A DNA stretch of 64,000 nucleotides from Armatimonadota bacterium. GTDB lineage: Bacteria > Armatimonadota > HRBIN16. The translations under genes and the position numbers were made by a program. The first letter of the stretch is position 1; each line of letters opens with the position of its first letter. Positions 1,535 to 43,258 of the stretch are shown piece by piece. The stretch covers positions 968,839 through 1,032,838 of the forward strand of contig BPGT01000001.1 of assembly GCA_026003175.1 (NCBI GenBank), read 5' to 3'. The notes beneath the pieces were generated by a model. That model did no database searches and was not told the DNA's origin. It was given only the letters and a program-made list of their open reading frames with translations.

Positions 1535-2803
1535 GTGTTCTGCACGCAATGCGGTGCATACAATACCGACAATAGCCGGTTTTGCCACCAGTGCGGACAT
1601 CGGCTACAGCCGGAACGCAAAATGCCAACGCTGGACGAGAGCGCGTTCCAGCTGGATTCGCCGGAGCAACAGGAGAAAATCCGGCAGCTGCTGAGCGACG
1701 CGCTGACGCATGAGGCGGAGGGACGGCTGAACGAAGCCATTCTGGCGTGTGAGGGCGTGCTGGTGCTGGACCCGGCGAACACATCCGCACACTCGTTGTT
1801 AGGGCTGATTTACGAGAAACAGGGCGAGTTGCAAAAGGCGATAGCGGAGTACGAGAAGGTAGTTGCGCTTAACCCGGATAGCGTAGCAGACCGCGCCAAG
1901 CTGGAGGAACTGCGTCGCCGCCTGCGGATGCCGACCCCCAAGCCTCCTCACAAGGAGATGAACCAGACGCCCCTGCTCATTGGCATCTTTGTCGCCGTCG
2001 GGCTGTTTGTGCTGGGACTGGCGGCGATGAATTATCAGCAACGTCCAGAGCCAGTGCAGAAGCAGACACAGCCGACTGCGTCGGCACAGCCCGCACCGCC
2101 GTCCACGGGCTACATTCCTTACGGCTGGTACACTCCTGCCTCGCCGGGTTATATCCAGCCCGGCGCTCCACAGATGCCGCCGACAAACCAACCCGTCACG
2201 CCACCGCGGGAACGCAGTGCAGAACGTCCATCCACTGAGAGCGCACGCACTGAAAGATTGCCATTACCTCCACTGCCTCCGTTGACGGTGGCTCCTTCAC
2301 CGCATTCTGGCATACCCCCTACCACGAGTAACCGCTCGCAGGACAGATCAGGTGGTGAGCAATCCGCTACAGAGGGGTCGGTGGTCATGCCGGATGTGCC
2401 TTTGCAGCCCGGAACAAGCAGACAACCTTCTGAACGCCAGCCGGTAATGGAGATTACCGTGCGCCCAGGCACAGGAGGCGGTAGCGGAGCAATCGCACCG
2501 CCACCCCCATCGATGGAGGCGGAAGACCTGATGCGAGTTGCCCAGCAGCACCAGCTGGCGGGCAGATACCGAGAGGCGATACCTCTCTACCAGAAGGCAC
2601 TGCAAGGTGCAACCGATAAGGGTTTTATCTACCAGCAGATTGGGCTATGCTATCAACGACTGGGTGAGACGGACTCCGCCCGCAATGCCTACCAGCAAGC
2701 TATTGCTGAGTACGAGCGTCAGATTGCAGCGGGACAGAACGTGGAGCGCGCAAGAAGAGGACTGGAAGCGGCGAAGCAAGGGCTGGCGGCATGTGGAGGG
2801 TAG
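1535..2803 (+). CDS. Zinc-ribbon, TPR and single-TM protein of unknown role
   Basis: The GTG at 1535 is chosen because GGGAGGTGG lies about 6 bp upstream; an in-frame ATG at 1466 lies inside ruvB. The 422-residue product begins with a rubredoxin-like zinc ribbon (CTQCGAYNTDNSRFCHQCG), followed by TPR-like helices (about 50-130) and one membrane segment (LLIGIFVAVGLFVLGLAAM, about 150-168). A long Pro/Ser/Gln-rich linker and a second pair of TPR helices (AGRYREAIPLYQKAL) end the protein. The order suggests a cytosolic zinc/TPR head with an extracytoplasmic TPR tail acting as a scaffold. No enzyme motif is seen. It probably shares a transcript with ruvB and the following TPR gene. Confidence 0.75.
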   Translation: MFCTQCGAYNTDNSRFCHQCGHRLQPERKMPTLDESAFQLDSPEQQEKIRQLLSDALTHEAEGRLNEAILACEGVLVLDPANTSAHSLLGLIYEKQGELQKAIAEYEKVVALNPDSVADRAKLEELRRRLRMPTPKPPHKEMNQTPLLIGIFVAVGLFVLGLAAMNYQQRPEPVQKQTQPTASAQPAPPSTGYIPYGWYTPASPGYIQPGAPQMPPTNQPVTPPRERSAERPSTESARTERLPLPPLPPLTVAPSPHSGIPPTTSNRSQDRSGGEQSATEGSVVMPDVPLQPGTSRQPSERQPVMEITVRPGTGGGSGAIAPPPPSMEAEDLMRVAQQHQLAGRYREAIPLYQKALQGATDKGFIYQQIGLCYQRLGETDSARNAYQQAIAEYERQIAAGQNVERARRGLEAAKQGLAACGG

Positions 2804-2809
2804 AACAGG

Positions 2810-4642
2810 ATGATGTGGAGTAGAAGATGTACAGAAATCACCTCACCCCCATCCCCTCTCCCTCGCAGGGAAGGGGGTCAGGGGGTTAGGTGGAACACAA
2901 CCTCACCCCCATCCCCTCTCCTAAGAGGAGAGGGGTGTAGACGCACTGTCGTGCATCCCTGTAAGCTGGGGTGTTTCTTCTGTTCCCCCTTCCCTCGCAG
3001 GGAAGGGGGTCAGGGGGTTAGGTTCCACCTAACCTCTCTGTACCTCGTTTTAATACTCGTGCTCCTCAGCGCTGTCTCCTTTGCCCAGCTGCCGGCACGT
3101 CGCCCGCTGGTGGTCATCTTCCCCGAAAAGGTGGAGGTCAAAAAGGACCAGCCCGACCTGAACGTAGGAATCGCCACTCCGCTGGCGGAACTGCTGGAAG
3201 CCACTCGTCGCGTGGATGTGCTGATTTACGACCCCTCTGCTCCATACATTCAGCGACTGGTGCAGGAAGGCACGCTGAAAGCCAACGATGCGCCCCCCCA
3301 GCCCTCCGCGGAACAGAAACGGCGCGTCGTGCAAGCACTGGATGGGCAGTTCGCCCTGACGGTACGCGCAGCATGGTCGGATAAACCTCCTGTGTTCCCC
3401 CGTCCCCCGCGAGGCAAAAAGATAGACCCCAACTTGCTGCAGAATCTGCCCACCACCTCGGTGGTTCAGGTTTCTGCAGTATGGATGCCGGTAGCAGGTG
3501 GGCGTTTGTGGCAGGTACAGCTGGAAAGCCAGCCGGTACAGCGTGCTCTGCCCGGAGGCGGGATGACCGTAGACCCGGTAAGCACCGCTCGCACCGCCGC
3601 CAGCAATCTGGTGGCTCGTCTGATGGCTGAGCCGATGGCAACGCTGGCACGGATAGACGTTACACAGAAAGAGGCACAGACTGCCGTTTCGCCTGGCGGA
3701 GCCCCATCGGAAGACGCCGATACGCTAATGAAACAGCTGCTGGAGGAAGGACAGAAATACGCCAGAGCGGGTGACCTCGCCAGCGCGATTGAATCCTATC
3801 GTAAGGCGGTGGACGCCAAGCCCACCGACCCCGAGCCTCGTCATCGCCTGATAGAGGCATACCTGCAAAGGCGGATGGAGGACGCAGCGGTAGCGGAGGG
3901 AATGCGCGCGGTGCAGATAGTATCGGATAGTACTCCCCTGCTACTCGTGCTGGCAGACGCTTACATGAGCGCGAACCGTCTGGACGAGGCGGAGACCCTG
4001 TATCGAAGGATGCTGGAGCGTGACCCTCAGAACGTCGTTGCATGGCTGCATTTAGGCGATTTGCTCTGGAATCGCGCTCGTATCACTGAGGCGGAGGAGT
4101 GCTACGCGCAAGCCGCGCAGAAATCGCCCACGGATACCGAGCCGCTGATGCGTCTGGCGAAGCTGCACCTTGCACGTGCTCAGTTTGCCCGGGCGCAGGA
4201 AGTGGTAGGCAGGCTATACGCCCTGCTGCCAGAAGAGGATGAAACACGGCGAGGCGAAGTGTACGCTACCCTGGTGGATGGTGTAGAGACGGGCATCACC
4301 CAGCTGGCGCAACGGGTCCAGGAGGCGATAGCCTCCTACAGCAACGGCGAGGTGACGCTGGAGACCCTCTTCAAGACACTGAAAGGGCTGGAAGCGCAGT
4401 GCAACGACCTGCAGCGCTTCACGCAGTCGCTCCAGCCCATCCCGCGCGTGCTAGACGCACACCAGCGGTTCCTGCTAGCGGGTAGCCTGCTCCAACAGTC
4501 GTTAGGAAGCCTGCTTTCGTTTGCTGAGACGAAAGAAACGCGCTATCAGGAAGAGGGGATGCTGTTGCGCAGTGAGGCGTTGCGCGAGTTGGCGAACGCT
4601 TCCCGCGCGCTGCGCGCCGCGCGGGCAGGGCAGCAGGGGTAA
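2810..4642 (+). CDS. Exported TPR-repeat protein with hairpin repeats in its 5' coding end
   Basis: The open frame encodes 610 residues. A hydrophobic export signal (LYLVLILVLLSAVSFAQ) appears only at about residues 78-94. The stretch before it is the translation of stacked C-rich/G-rich hairpin repeats (TSPPSPLPRREGGQGVR-type peptides occur three times). The mature part has a CsgG-like or uncharacterised N-terminal region, then at least four TPR units between about residues 300 and 470 (LASAIESYRKAV, LDEAETLYRRML, ITEAEECYAQAA) and a helical tail. The ATG at 2810 has GGAGGG 10 bp upstream, so it may be the ancestral start with the repeats inserted between it and the signal peptide. An internal GTG nearer the signal is the alternative. 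Function is unknown; a periplasmic assembly role is a guess. Confidence 0.7.
   Translation: MMWSRRCTEITSPPSPLPRREGGQGVRWNTTSPPSPLLRGEGCRRTVVHPCKLGCFFCSPFPRREGGQGVRFHLTSLYLVLILVLLSAVSFAQLPARRPLVVIFPEKVEVKKDQPDLNVGIATPLAELLEATRRVDVLIYDPSAPYIQRLVQEGTLKANDAPPQPSAEQKRRVVQALDGQFALTVRAAWSDKPPVFPRPPRGKKIDPNLLQNLPTTSVVQVSAVWMPVAGGRLWQVQLESQPVQRALPGGGMTVDPVSTARTAASNLVARLMAEPMATLARIDVTQKEAQTAVSPGGAPSEDADTLMKQLLEEGQKYARAGDLASAIESYRKAVDAKPTDPEPRHRLIEAYLQRRMEDAAVAEGMRAVQIVSDSTPLLLVLADAYMSANRLDEAETLYRRMLERDPQNVVAWLHLGDLLWNRARITEAEECYAQAAQKSPTDTEPLMRLAKLHLARAQFARAQEVVGRLYALLPEEDETRRGEVYATLVDGVETGITQLAQRVQEAIASYSNGEVTLETLFKTLKGLEAQCNDLQRFTQSLQPIPRVLDAHQRFLLAGSLLQQSLGSLLSFAETKETRYQEEGMLLRSEALRELANASRALRAARAGQQG
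2839..3033 (+). repeat. Cluster of three C-rich/G-rich hairpin repeats
   Basis: Three units of the type CCTCACCCCCATCCCCTCTC / CAGGGAAGGGGGTCAGGGGG lie at about 2839-2891, 2900-2940 and 2985-3033. Units 1 and 3 share CCTCGCAGGGAAGGGGGTCA and its flanks; the middle unit has the alternative arm CTAAGAGGAGAGGGG. Each can fold into a hairpin. All lie inside the open frame of the TPR gene. The same family forms the core of the 186-bp MITEs and hairpins near 26230, 27096 and 60837. Confidence 0.8.
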
Positions 4643-11675: not shown

Positions 11676-11861
11676 GAGGGTGTTCGAAATTGCTGGTTGA
11701 ATGGATAGATAACCTAACCCCCTTGCCCCCTTCCCTGCAAGGGAAGGGGGAACGCCCCTCTCCTCGTAGGAGAGGGGACGGGGGTGAGGTAAGGCAGGGA
11801 TAGCAAGAACGCCTCTCTCCTTGCGCTACAACCAACTTCTCAACAATTCTCGAACACCCTC
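11676..11861 (+). mobile_element. 186-bp MITE, copy 1
   Basis: This is a non-autonomous element with inverted ends: GAGGGTGTTCGA at the left, and the right end read in reverse starts GAGGGTGTTCGAGAATTG. It is flanked by a perfect 9-bp direct repeat GGACATACT at 11667-11675 and 11862-11870. The interior holds two C-rich/G-rich hairpins. It is identical to copy 3 (43073-43258) and differs from copy 2 (12989-13174) at two positions. It contains no credible gene. The right target duplication ends in the first T of the TTGACA box of the following lacI-type gene. Confidence 0.93.
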
Positions 11862-12988: not shown

Positions 12989-13174
12989 GAGGGTGTTCGA
13001 AATCGCTGGTTGAATGGATAGATAACCTAACCCCCTTGCCCCCTTCCCTGCAAGGGAAGGGGGAACGCCCCTCTCCTCGCAGGAGAGGGGACGGGGGTGA
13101 GGTAAGGCAGGGATAGCAAGAACGCCTCTCTCCTTGCGCTACAACCAACTTCTCAACAATTCTCGAACACCCTC
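12989..13174 (+). mobile_element. 186-bp MITE, copy 2
   Basis: Same length, ends and orientation as copies 1 and 3, with two T-to-C differences (GAAATCGCTGG near the left end, CTCGCAGG in the second hairpin loop). The flanking 9-bp duplication is TGGCGAAAA at 12980-12988 and 13175-13183, different from the other copies, so it inserted independently. It lies 17 bp after the LacI-family stop and 88 bp before fucI. Confidence 0.93.
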
Positions 13175-18935: not shown

Positions 18936-19312
18936 GGCAAGCACCTCCTGAGTTTGCCACGAGGAGTGGCGGTCGATGACACGAGAAAACGGCTCGGCAG
19001 GAGCCTCGCCCTCCAGAGCGTATCCTTGCGAGCGTCAGCGAAGTCATCCCCTCCGCCTCCAGTGCAGTGATCCGTTGGCCTCTTTCACGGCTGAAGCCGT
19101 TCCCTCGCAAACCCTATTCGGCCAGCGAAGGCTGGATTCGTCTGAATGGGTGCGGCTTCAGCCGCAAACGCTCAGGGAGATTCTTCGCTGTTTACCTGGA
19201 GTGCTTATGCACGCCACATCGTTTCTCTACTGTGAGAAACATTCCTGCACGGCGTCTTGCCGTGAAGCGGTGGTCTGATGCACCAGGCGTGAAGTTATGC
19301 TATACTGAAAAT
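18936..19312. repeat. Intergenic region with two dispersed repeat types
   Basis: At 18981-19060 there is a repeat with ACGAGAAAACGGCTCGGCAG, GAGCCTCGCCCTCC, CTTGCGAGCGTCAGCGA and ATCCCCTCCGC. A closely matching block lies at 36172-36243. At about 19085-19170 shorter inverted units carry GGCTGAAGCCGTTCCCTCGC and GGCTTCAGCCGC, similar to 37263-37283. No gene is seen. The gmk promoter closes the region. Confidence 0.65.
19298..19306 (+). promoter_or_regulatory. Extended -10 promoter giving a leaderless gmk transcript
   Basis: TGCTATACT at 19298-19306 is an extended -10 element. Only six bases separate it from ATG 19313, so transcription should start at or within a base or two of the ATG. No Shine-Dalgarno sequence is present and no good -35 box is seen. 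Confidence 0.6.
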
Positions 19313-26229: not shown

Positions 26230-26323
26230 ACCCCCTCTCCCAACGCTGCGAGAGGGGGCTGGGAGTGAGGGTTACACCTTCTCGGGCACGACGTAGGGCT
26301 TCCGGTACTCGCGGGTGAGCAGT
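26230..26323. repeat. 94-bp direct repeat, copy A (left of the toxin-antitoxin pair)
   Basis: It has the same length as copy B (27094-27187). The first 17 bp are identical, the next 19 bp differ in the hairpin, and the last 58 bp (26266-26323) are identical. Those 58 bp are the 3' end of the Gfo/Idh gene including its stop codon, so this copy is a displaced gene fragment. Confidence 0.92.
26231..26258. terminator. Hairpin terminator between convergent genes
   Basis: CCCCCTCTC (26231-26239) and GAGAGGGGG (26250-26258) form a 9-bp stem around a 10-base loop. It can stop transcription from the small membrane-protein gene (+) and from the toxin gene (-). Confidence 0.6.
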
Positions 26324-26326
26324 GGG

Positions 26327-27093: not shown

Positions 27094-27187
27094 ACCCCCT
27101 CTCCCAACGCCTTGGGAGAGGGGTGGGGGTGAGGGTTACACCTTCTCGGGCACGACGTAGGGCTTCCGGTACTCGCGGGTGAGCAGT
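27094..27187. repeat. 94-bp direct repeat, copy B (native 3' end of the Gfo/Idh gene)
   Basis: It contains the last 17 codons and stop of the oxidoreductase gene (minus strand) plus its hairpin terminator. The partner copy is at 26230-26323. Confidence 0.92.
27096..27123 (-). terminator. Terminator of the Gfo/Idh gene
   Basis: CCCCTCTCCCAA (27096-27107), loop CGCC and TTGGGAGAGGGG (27112-27123) form a perfect 12-bp stem 12 bp after the stop codon. Confidence 0.7.
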
Positions 27188-28578
27188 CGGTTCGCCCGCG
27201 AATCACGCCCGCAGGTTTCGTGTTCGGTATCTATCCGCAGTTCGCGCCCCAAACGATATTTTGTTTCCCGCAACACGATGTTGTTCGCCGCGAGGTGCTC
27301 CTCGAAGCGGGCGAAGGTCTCGTAAGCCTCTTTGTTATCCCCGAAAGCTTTCTTCTCGGCGTCAAACGGCACCAGCTCACCCAGCCGATAGGAGACGTTG
27401 CCCAGGTGGCACAACGCGCTGGAGAGATGTCCCTCCTCGATGTCGGCGTGCAGGTCGGTGTGCTTTCGGCTACGCACGGCGTCGAGAAAGTTGCGCATGT
27501 GGTCGCCGCCCGCGTTGAACTCAGTTACCTTGTTGCCGTCGTTGTCGAACACAATCGCCTGGCTGTAGCTGGGGATGACCATGATGCCCTTCTCGCCGTA
27601 GAAGATGTTGCCCACCTTTACACCCTTCAGGTCGGGCGTTTCCAATCCACGCACCTCGAAGATGAGCTGGCAGTCGCCATAGTCGCAGAAGACCAGTTCA
27701 GTGTTAGGCGTCTCGCCGTCGTCCACATAGCCGAAACGCCCCCCCAAGCCCAGCACCTTGTTCGGCAGGGTGTGTTTGTTCAGCCCCCAACGGGCGATGT
27801 CCATCTGGTGCACACCCTGATTGCCCAGGTCGCCGTTGCCGTAGTCCCAGAACCAGTGCCAGTCGTAGTGGAATCGCTGCCGCATCACCGGCTTTTTGGG
27901 CGCGGGTCCCAGCCAGATGTCGTAGTCCACTGTAGCGGGTGGTTCCTGCGGACCGGGCACTTTGCCGATGGAGTCGCGTCGCTTGTAGCATAGTCCGCGT
28001 GCCAGATATATCTTGCCCAGATTGCCCTCGTGTAGATACTGTATCGCCTGACGGATGCCTTCGGCAGAGCGAATCTGCGTACCACCCTGGCAGATGCGCC
28101 CCAGCTGGCGGGCGATTTGCACCGTACGCCGTCCCTCCCACACGTTGTGGCTGGTGGGTTTCTCCACGTACACGTCCTTACCCGCCATCATCGCCCAGAT
28201 AGCGGCAAGTGCGTGCCAGTGGTTGGGCGTGGCGATGGTCACCACGTCCACATCTTTGTCTTCCAGCAGCTTGCGGAGGTCCTGATAGGTTTTGGGTTTG
28301 GGTCTGCCCGCATCTTCCACAATCTTCAAGCCAACGGGCCACACCGCCTCGTCCACATCGCACAGCGCCACGAGGTCTACGTCAGGCTGAGCAAGCAGCT
28401 GGCGGATGTGGCTTTTGCCCTGTCCGTTGAAGCCGATGACCGCCGCGCCGATGCGGTCATTGGGGCTGGCTTGCTTACGAGCCGCCTTGACCGAAGCGAA
28501 AACGGGAGCGGGCAACGCAGTGACCGCCAGCAGTGCCAGAGAGTCCTGTAAGAATCGTCGTCGTGAGAGCTTATGCAT
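27136..28578 (-). CDS. Tat-exported Gfo/Idh/MocA-family oxidoreductase
   Basis: ATG 28578 follows GGGGGAAGGAACG; the earlier in-frame start at 28629 has none. The 480-residue product begins with a twin-arginine signal (LSRRRFLQDSLALLAVTALP), then a Rossmann NAD(P)-binding domain (GAAVIGFNGQGKSH, LVALCDVDEA), the family's VEKPTSHN motif and a C-terminal domain with GNQGVHQMDIARWGL. Such enzymes oxidise or reduce sugars and inositols; exported forms often act on glycan-derived sugars. The last 17 codons are duplicated at 26266-26323 beyond the toxin-antitoxin pair. Substrate unknown. Confidence 0.9.
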   Translation of the reverse strand: MHKLSRRRFLQDSLALLAVTALPAPVFASVKAARKQASPNDRIGAAVIGFNGQGKSHIRQLLAQPDVDLVALCDVDEAVWPVGLKIVEDAGRPKPKTYQDLRKLLEDKDVDVVTIATPNHWHALAAIWAMMAGKDVYVEKPTSHNVWEGRRTVQIARQLGRICQGGTQIRSAEGIRQAIQYLHEGNLGKIYLARGLCYKRRDSIGKVPGPQEPPATVDYDIWLGPAPKKPVMRQRFHYDWHWFWDYGNGDLGNQGVHQMDIARWGLNKHTLPNKVLGLGGRFGYVDDGETPNTELVFCDYGDCQLIFEVRGLETPDLKGVKVGNIFYGEKGIMVIPSYSQAIVFDNDGNKVTEFNAGGDHMRNFLDAVRSRKHTDLHADIEEGHLSSALCHLGNVSYRLGELVPFDAEKKAFGDNKEAYETFARFEEHLAANNIVLRETKYRLGRELRIDTEHETCGRDSRANRLLTREYRKPYVVPEKV

Positions 28579-36145: not shown

Positions 36146-36349
36146 GCACTTTTTGCGGGGGGACTACCCAGGCAACGGCTCGACAGGAGCCTCGCCCTCC
36201 GGTGCGGTGTCATTGCGAGCGTTAGCGAGGCAATCCCCTCCGCACCACCAGCAAGGAGATTGATTCGGCACTTCGTGCCTCGCAATGATACGAGAAACGG
36301 CTTGGCGGGAGCTTTGTCCCGCCGAGAGACCTTTTGGGGAGGTGACACA
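36146..36349. repeat. Intergenic GTCATTGCGAG-type repeat block
   Basis: About 36172-36325 holds GGCTCGACAGGAGCCTCGCC, GTGTCATTGCGAGCGTTAGC, GCACTTCGTGCCTCGCAATG and GCGGGAGCTTTGTCCCGC. The first part matches 18990-19055 closely. A ribosome site GGGGAGGTGAC precedes GTG 36350. No gene is seen in the block. Confidence 0.7.
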
Positions 36350-43072: not shown

Positions 43073-43258
43073 GAGGGTGTTCGAAATTGCTGGTTGAATG
43101 GATAGATAACCTAACCCCCTTGCCCCCTTCCCTGCAAGGGAAGGGGGAACGCCCCTCTCCTCGTAGGAGAGGGGACGGGGGTGAGGTAAGGCAGGGATAG
43201 CAAGAACGCCTCTCTCCTTGCGCTACAACCAACTTCTCAACAATTCTCGAACACCCTC
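43073..43258 (+). mobile_element. 186-bp MITE, copy 3
   Basis: Identical in sequence and length to copy 1 (11676-11861), same orientation. The 9-bp target duplication is ACTTGCGGC at 43064-43072 and 43259-43267. It separates the divergent promoters of the GH57 gene and pncA. Confidence 0.93.

What the first reader, a model, noticed from the sequence alone, without database searches (positions are those of the whole stretch)
2810..3050. Three hairpin repeats separate a start codon from its export signal
The TPR protein's signal peptide begins about 78 codons after ATG 2810, and the gap is filled by three repeat-derived peptides. If translation starts at 2810 the export signal is buried; if it starts at an internal codon, the repeats form a structured leader that could control translation. 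Either way a repeat invasion has reshaped a gene's 5' end.
Basis: partly seen in the sequence, partly recalled or inferred. Interest (0 to 1): 0.5.

Follow-up and report, generated by a model that had tools for sequence, protein, structure and literature searches.

The report
Hairpin repeats translated inside signal peptides
In a genus of uncultured bacteria, arrays of hairpin DNA repeats sit in frame inside the export signals of several unrelated secreted-protein genes, probably because that stretch of protein is cut off and discarded.

Summary
In detail: a repeat array (four stem-loops by folding, not three) lies between ATG 2810 and the hydrophobic core of a Sec-type signal peptide. Five have a short, repeat-free signal peptide at the same place; five carry arrays of different length at the same n-region/h-region boundary, and in 4 of these 5 the array is open and in frame with the ATG beside the upstream gene. 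So the array is most likely translated from 2810 as an enlarged n-region, not a 5' leader. The pattern recurs: 8 families of secreted or lipoprotein genes carry these repeats in frame before the core (29 gene copies: 23 clear arrays, 6 decayed remnants). Against it: two more copies are out of frame, one in-frame copy has a stop ten codons into its mature part, and one glycosidase-like gene holds an internal array. Best reading: palindromic repeats, comparable to Rickettsia palindromic elements, persist inside genes mainly where the coded segment is cleaved off, and their arginine-rich peptide can serve as n-region. Export and cleavage are inferred, not shown.

The parts
2795..2800 (+). Shine-Dalgarno-like GGAGGG, at the end of the upstream gene
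   Evidence: sequence; not tested experimentally
2810..2839 (+). start codon and original n-region MMWSRRCTEI
   Evidence: same place and similar residues in repeat-free and repeat-bearing orthologues
2841..2890 (+). stem-loop 1 (repeat copy 1), coding SPPSPLPRREGGQGVR
2900..2938 (+). repeat copy 2 with stem-loop 2 (2910-2938), coding TSPPSPLLRGEGC
2939..2983 (+). spacer between repeat copies 2 and 3; holds GTG 2951, an internal start codon found only in this genome
2984..3036 (+). repeat copy 3 with stem-loop 3 (2985-3009) and a further stem-loop (3014-3036), coding SPFPRREGGQGVRFHLTS
3029..3085 (+). signal-peptide h-region and c-region LTSLYLVLILVLLSAVSFA, cleavage inferred before Q93
   Evidence: translation; conserved ..FAQ in the orthologues; no signal-peptide predictor was run
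3086..4642 (+). mature TPR-repeat protein and stop codon
   Evidence: Pfam TPR families; 75-88% identity in nine congeneric genomes

Best explanation
A family of G+C-rich palindromic repeats, found mostly outside genes, was inserted in frame between the n-region and the h-region of this gene's signal peptide and later changed copy number. Translation starts at ATG 2810 and reads through the array, giving a precursor with a long proline-, glycine- and arginine-rich n-region (TSPPSPLLRGEG..SPFPRREGGQGVR). The h-region and cleavage site follow, so the Sec pathway can still take the protein and signal peptidase removes the whole repeat-coded part; the mature protein is unchanged. Similar insertions happened in seven other secreted-protein families of the genus. 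In-frame arrays are kept mainly where the coded peptide is discarded and where the repeat's arginines can stand in for n-region charge. SHOWN by sequence: insertion relative to repeat-free orthologues (five families looked up), same start region, frame retention in most copies, recurrence. INFERRED: translation itself, export, cleavage, and that tolerance rather than benefit explains retention.
For: Repeat-free orthologues: TPR 5 of 10 genomes; Big_7 family 2 of 10, amylase 4 of 10, 733-aa family 5 of 9, lipoprotein 2 of 8 (two more loci cut by a contig end). In-frame arrays: TPR 4 of 5; 23 of 25 clear arrays over 8 families are in frame from a start codon to the core (22 of 25 if the amylase of G008, whose mature part stops after ten codons, is not counted). 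Copies found without use of an open frame: 7 of 9 in frame (6 of 9 leaving out that amylase); binomial tail against one third 0.008 (0.042). Net charge of the last 12 residues before the core is +1 to +4 in 25 of 29 rows. Control: hairpin spacing is a multiple of 3 in 13 of 15 cases within genes, 15 of 51 elsewhere, 1 of 6 in the out-of-frame array.
Against: Two arrays are out of frame: TPR in G009 and the 733-aa family in G000. The amylase of G008 has a stop ten codons into the mature part. One array is internal, in a glycosidase-like gene. Net charge before the core is 0 in 2 and -1 in 2 of 29 rows. Many copies were found through open frames and share ancestry, so the frame statistics are weaker than they look. 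No proteomic, transcript or signal-peptide-predictor evidence.
Confidence: 0.75

Rival explanations
1. The array is a structured 5' leader: translation starts at an internal codon (GTG 2951, or CTG 3038 in the core) and the hairpins regulate it.
For: The hairpins are strong. GTG 2951 is in frame in this genome; CTG at -20 codons recurs in G000, G003, G004 and G008.
Against: GTG 2951 is absent from the other species; the recurring CTG and -13 codons are residues of the core, and starting there would leave no n-region. A leader need not stay open and in frame with the upstream ATG, yet 4 of 5 do. Start codons in other families likewise lie upstream of the array.
Confidence: 0.1
2. The long repeat-coded n-region is beneficial, for instance by slowing translation or changing targeting, and is kept by selection.
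For: The arrangement recurs in 8 families and decayed remnants persist in frame. Long signal peptides with extra functions are known in autotransporters (PMC2805444, passages).
Against: Length varies widely between species (pre-regions of 40-235 residues), and several species do without in each of the five families looked up. Array units differ by replacements within one array.
Confidence: 0.12
3. The array has destroyed the export signal or the gene; the open frame is chance or recent decay.
For: TPR in G009 and the 733-aa family in G000 are out of frame, and the amylase of G008 is interrupted.
Against: In this gene 519 mature codons remain open and 87% identical to G003 and G004. Arrays with six or more hairpins elsewhere are closed in all six frames in 10 of 12 cases, within genes in 0 of 3 (openness partly defined the classes).
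Confidence: 0.05

Closest known systems
Rickettsia palindromic elements (RPE; review PMC10969869, passages seen)
   Same: Palindromic repeats with a stop-free frame, present between genes and in frame inside unrelated genes; the protein must tolerate the extra peptide.
   Different: Here mainly tandem arrays, mainly at signal-peptide n-regions; RPE insertions are described in many kinds of genes. No sequence comparison with RPE was made.
[quoted passage not shown] pestis (PMC2759123, passages seen)
   Same: A small mobile repeat supplies residues of a predicted signal peptide.
   Different: One gene there, with the repeat contributing to the signal itself; here 8 families, the native core kept, and repeat-free orthologues available for five.
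186-bp MITE of this genome (11676, 12989, 43073)
   Same: Carries a two-hairpin module of the same repeat family, inside inverted-repeat ends with 9-bp target duplications.
   Different: The array at 2840-3036 has no such ends: the end-to-end pattern finds only the three MITEs in the window.
Long autotransporter signal peptides with an extended N-terminal region (PMC2805444, passages seen)
   Same: A long N-terminal stretch before an ordinary Sec core.
   Different: There a conserved extension in one secretion class; here repeat-derived, variable in length, in unrelated proteins.

Membership tests
RPE-like in-frame palindromic repeats | palindromic repeat dispersed through the genome | tested here: met
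   98 + 112 core matches against 0 + 1 control; stem-loops z -2.9 to -6.2
RPE-like in-frame palindromic repeats | in-frame presence inside unrelated genes, absent from some orthologues | tested here: met
   29 rows in 8 families; repeat-free orthologues in the five families looked up; two copies out of frame
RPE-like in-frame palindromic repeats | sequence relationship to Rickettsia elements | not tested
   no comparison made
MITE | terminal inverted repeats and target-site duplication | tested here: not met
   found for three 186-bp elements in the window, not at the array 2840-3036
REP elements mobilised by RAYT transposases | associated RAYT (Y1) transposase | not tested
   no transposase search was made
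Sec signal peptide | hydrophobic core and small-residue cleavage site after a positive n-region | tested here: met
   by translation and hydropathy (maximum 3.02 over 12 residues, charge +2 before the core); no predictor run
Sec signal peptide | cleavage and export in the cell | not testable with these tools
   needs experiment
Autotransporter extended signal peptide | conserved extension motif | not tested
   the extension here is repeat-derived; no motif comparison was run

The most novel reading that the evidence does not exclude
Signal-peptide n-regions are a general refuge inside genes for repeat elements: because the segment is cleaved off and needs little beyond positive charge, palindromic repeats whose open frame codes arginine-rich peptides can insert, expand to some 200 codons and persist across species in many secreted-protein genes, acting as portable n-regions.
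Probability: 0.5. Interest if true: 0.72.

Novelty: new variant of a known kind. Interest (0 to 1): 0.6.

Why it matters
In-frame palindromic repeats are known, but the proteins must tolerate them. Here the arrays seen inside genes fall mainly in the one coded segment that is thought to be discarded, which gives a simple, testable rule for where mobile repeats may live inside genes. It also offers a natural series of n-regions from about ten to over 200 residues on related signal peptides, and it warns that gene callers and signal-peptide predictors may misplace starts or miss secreted proteins in such genomes.

Tried and rejected
Structured 5' leader: disfavoured, because the frame with the upstream ATG is kept and GTG 2951 is not shared. 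Hairpins blocking the start: folding 2700-3150 and 2770-3060 gave context-dependent pairing (unpaired probability 0.25 and 0.19 for 2793-2798, 0.54 and 0.33 for 2810-2815); I draw nothing from it. Rfam, window 2500-3300, gathering threshold: no match. Phylum search with a repeat-plus-signal-peptide profile: 26 of 291 genomes matched at E 1e-4, ten of them this genus; the three places viewed in one other genome (G217) showed no signal peptide after the repeat; the other matching genomes were not looked at. I first took the G000 C2:265 kb array for noncoding; on the other strand it lies inside a glycosidase-like gene, and I moved it to the within-gene class before the last count. Two long frames through arrays (L252, L224) have no Pfam match and look like chance frames. 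Arrays in open frames before GlnE-, epimerase-, prepilin-, Era- and regulator-like genes were counted as upstream, because the gene's frame has a stop before the array or a start codon follows it; N-terminal extensions there are not excluded (most of these gene names were recognised by eye). For small arrays openness does not discriminate: with 1-2 hairpins 0 of 59 elsewhere and 0 of 5 within genes are closed in all six frames, with 3-5 hairpins 2 of 13 and 0 of 4. The 'not in print' statement rests on six paper searches and on passages of three papers.

Full report
What is there. The window lies in a 4.1-Mb, 7-contig genome (G000:C1:968839-1032838), with nine further genomes of the genus on hand. 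Three named records encoding close relatives are metagenome bins, one titled 'Armatimonadetes bacterium'. ATG 2810 opens a 610-codon frame whose later part is a TPR protein. After ten residues (MMWSRRCTEI) come three repeat copies that fold into four stem-loops, then LTSLYLVLILVLLSAVSFA|Q, by eye a Sec-type core and cleavage site. Six bases separate the upstream gene's stop from the ATG, and GGAGGG stands at 2795-2800.

The repeat. The 18-nt hairpin core has 98 + 112 matches in G000 with up to two mismatches, against 0 + 1 for the control pattern. One frequent form is the middle of a 186-bp MITE with ends GAGGGTGTTCGA..TCGAACACCCTC; its three copies in the window have identical 9-bp flanks. 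Other copies occur singly or in arrays of up to 14 hairpins; of 104 clusters in the G000 and G004 loci held at that point, 7 carried the MITE sequence. The array at 2840-3036 has no MITE ends.

Orthologues of this gene. All nine other genomes have it (75-88% identity). G001, G002, G005, G006 and G007 have repeat-free signal peptides at the same place, for example MRMSRRSGKTCLLVVVLVLLSISAFAQ in G002. G000, G003, G004, G008 and G009 carry arrays of different length at the same boundary. In G000, G003, G004 and G008 an ATG close to the upstream gene's stop is in frame with the core, 96, 99, 62 and 170 codons before the conserved RRPLV, with no stop between; in G009 the ATG frame closes after 56 codons and no ATG is in frame with the core. 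Shared internal start-like codons are only those inside the core. On a tree of joined proteins, presence of the TPR array needs at least three changes; G006, without array, lies among array-bearing species.

It recurs. The repeat peptide has hits in all 10 genomes (G000 capped at 150 scored candidates; G003 89, G004 75 and G009 99 hits at E 1, where the last list is cut). I fetched places with long stop-free frames, then others around repeat sites, and looked up orthologues of four families. Seven further families show the arrangement: a Big_7-domain protein, an alpha-amylase, a 733-residue protein without a Pfam match, a lipoprotein with lipobox-like LLASC, a solute-binding protein, an NPCBM-domain protein and one unknown. 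tabulates 29 gene copies in which start codon, array and core share one open frame: 23 with clear arrays, 6 with decayed remnants. I chose the start codons; two are GTG. From start to cleavage or lipobox anchor the pre-regions, core included, are 40-235 residues. In 19 of the 23 clear arrays (counted by eye) the last unit ends in a G/E-x-R or G-(L/I)-G shortly before the core. The last 12 residues before the core have net charge +1 to +4 in 25 of 29, 0 in 2 and -1 in 2. The first hairpin begins 29-50 nt after the start in 21 of the 27 rows where the pattern found one. Of these 29 copies, 25 continue to a stop near the expected end, three run to the end of the locus, and one, the amylase of G008, stops ten codons into the mature part.

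Copies against the rule. TPR in G009 and the 733-residue family in G000 are out of frame; the latter's 14-hairpin array has irregular spacing (88, 95, 97, 95, 96, 97). The lipoprotein locus of G000 is 99.4% identical to that of G004 over 3.55 kb, has its array in frame but the gene matches in two pieces, and was not counted.

How strong is the frame signal? Overall 23 of 25 clear arrays are in frame (binomial tail against one third 1.5e-9), but many were found because the frame is open. Copies found without that, as orthologues, are: TPR 3 of 4, Big_7 family 1 of 1 (G003), amylase 2 of 2 (G004, G008), 733-residue family 0 of 1 (G000), lipoprotein 1 of 1 (G004); together 7 of 9 (tail 0.008), or 6 of 9 (0.042) leaving out the interrupted amylase. 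Copies share ancestry, so these are guides, not probabilities.

Control. Of 97 non-MITE clusters in fetched G000 (48) and G004 (49) loci (not a complete census), I judged 12 within genes, 1 out of frame and 84 elsewhere. Hairpin spacings are multiples of 3 in 13 of 15 within genes, 15 of 51 elsewhere, 1 of 6 in the out-of-frame array. Of arrays with six or more hairpins, 10 of 12 elsewhere are closed in all six frames, against 0 of 3 within genes. Openness helped define the classes, so this supports but does not prove.

Where in genes? Of the 12 within-gene clusters, 11 stand at a signal-peptide n/h boundary (the near-identical lipoprotein locus counted in both genomes) and one is internal: five 26-codon units in a glycosidase-like protein of G000, read from the other strand (its Pfam match to Glyco_hydro_42, E 0.0017, is below the curated cut-off). 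By family it is 8 against 1 over all genomes looked at. Hydropathy was not used in choosing the long frames, but it helped me to accept the unknown G004 family, and the second copies of the solute-binding and NPCBM families came from a profile that includes the core. A few arrays before other genes were called untranslated because a start codon follows, which favours my reading.

Mechanism. Most likely the repeats arise at many places, mostly outside genes, and inside genes survive where the coded peptide is harmless. A signal peptide's n-region needs positive charge and little else and is removed with the signal peptide (general knowledge), so the mature protein does not change; the favoured frame of the repeat codes arginine-rich ends (PRREGGQGVR) able to act as n-region. 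That export still works is inferred from intact cores, cleavage sites and mature parts.

Known and new. [quoted passage not shown] pestis gene (PMC2759123, passages). Long signal peptides are known from autotransporters (PMC2805444, passages). In six searches (listings only apart from these passages) I saw no report of hairpin arrays recurrently occupying signal-peptide n-regions. Hence: a new variant of a known kind.

Noticed in passing
11676-11861, 12989-13174, 43073-43258: Three copies of a 186-bp MITE with inverted-repeat ends and identical 9-bp flanks; it carries the two-hairpin module, and many places with the same score as its copies are listed in the genome.
   Followed up: partly
L060:2-2782 (minus strand), G000 C2 about 265 kb: A glycosidase-like protein holds five 26-codon repeat units in its middle, in frame, read from the strand opposite to the usual one.
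   Followed up: partly
L192 / L111 (G000 C5 about 97 kb): A 14-hairpin array before the 733-residue family gene is out of frame and irregularly spaced, while the downstream frame is intact.
   Followed up: partly
L201 and L205: The lipoprotein loci of G004 and G000 are 99.4% identical over 3.55 kb, far above the 83-88% protein identity of other genes compared between them: a recent transfer or a binning error.
   Followed up: no
L180 (G008 C96): The amylase gene of G008 has a stop codon ten codons into the mature part, while the array before it is open.
   Followed up: no
18988-19020, 36174-36206, 36296-36328: A different short dispersed repeat (AACGGCTCGGCAGGAGCCTCGCCCTCC..); similar reading NGSAGASPS also turns up beside hairpin clusters elsewhere.
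   Followed up: no
26230-26326 and 27094-27190: A 97-nt duplication that includes one hairpin of this kind and the adjoining sequence, 92% identical.
   Followed up: no
L051 (G000 C1 about 1118 kb): A six-hairpin array begins directly after the stop of a gene ending VPEPATMALFGLGLAAVGGLVRRKRG, a PEP-CTERM-like tail (label recalled).
   Followed up: no
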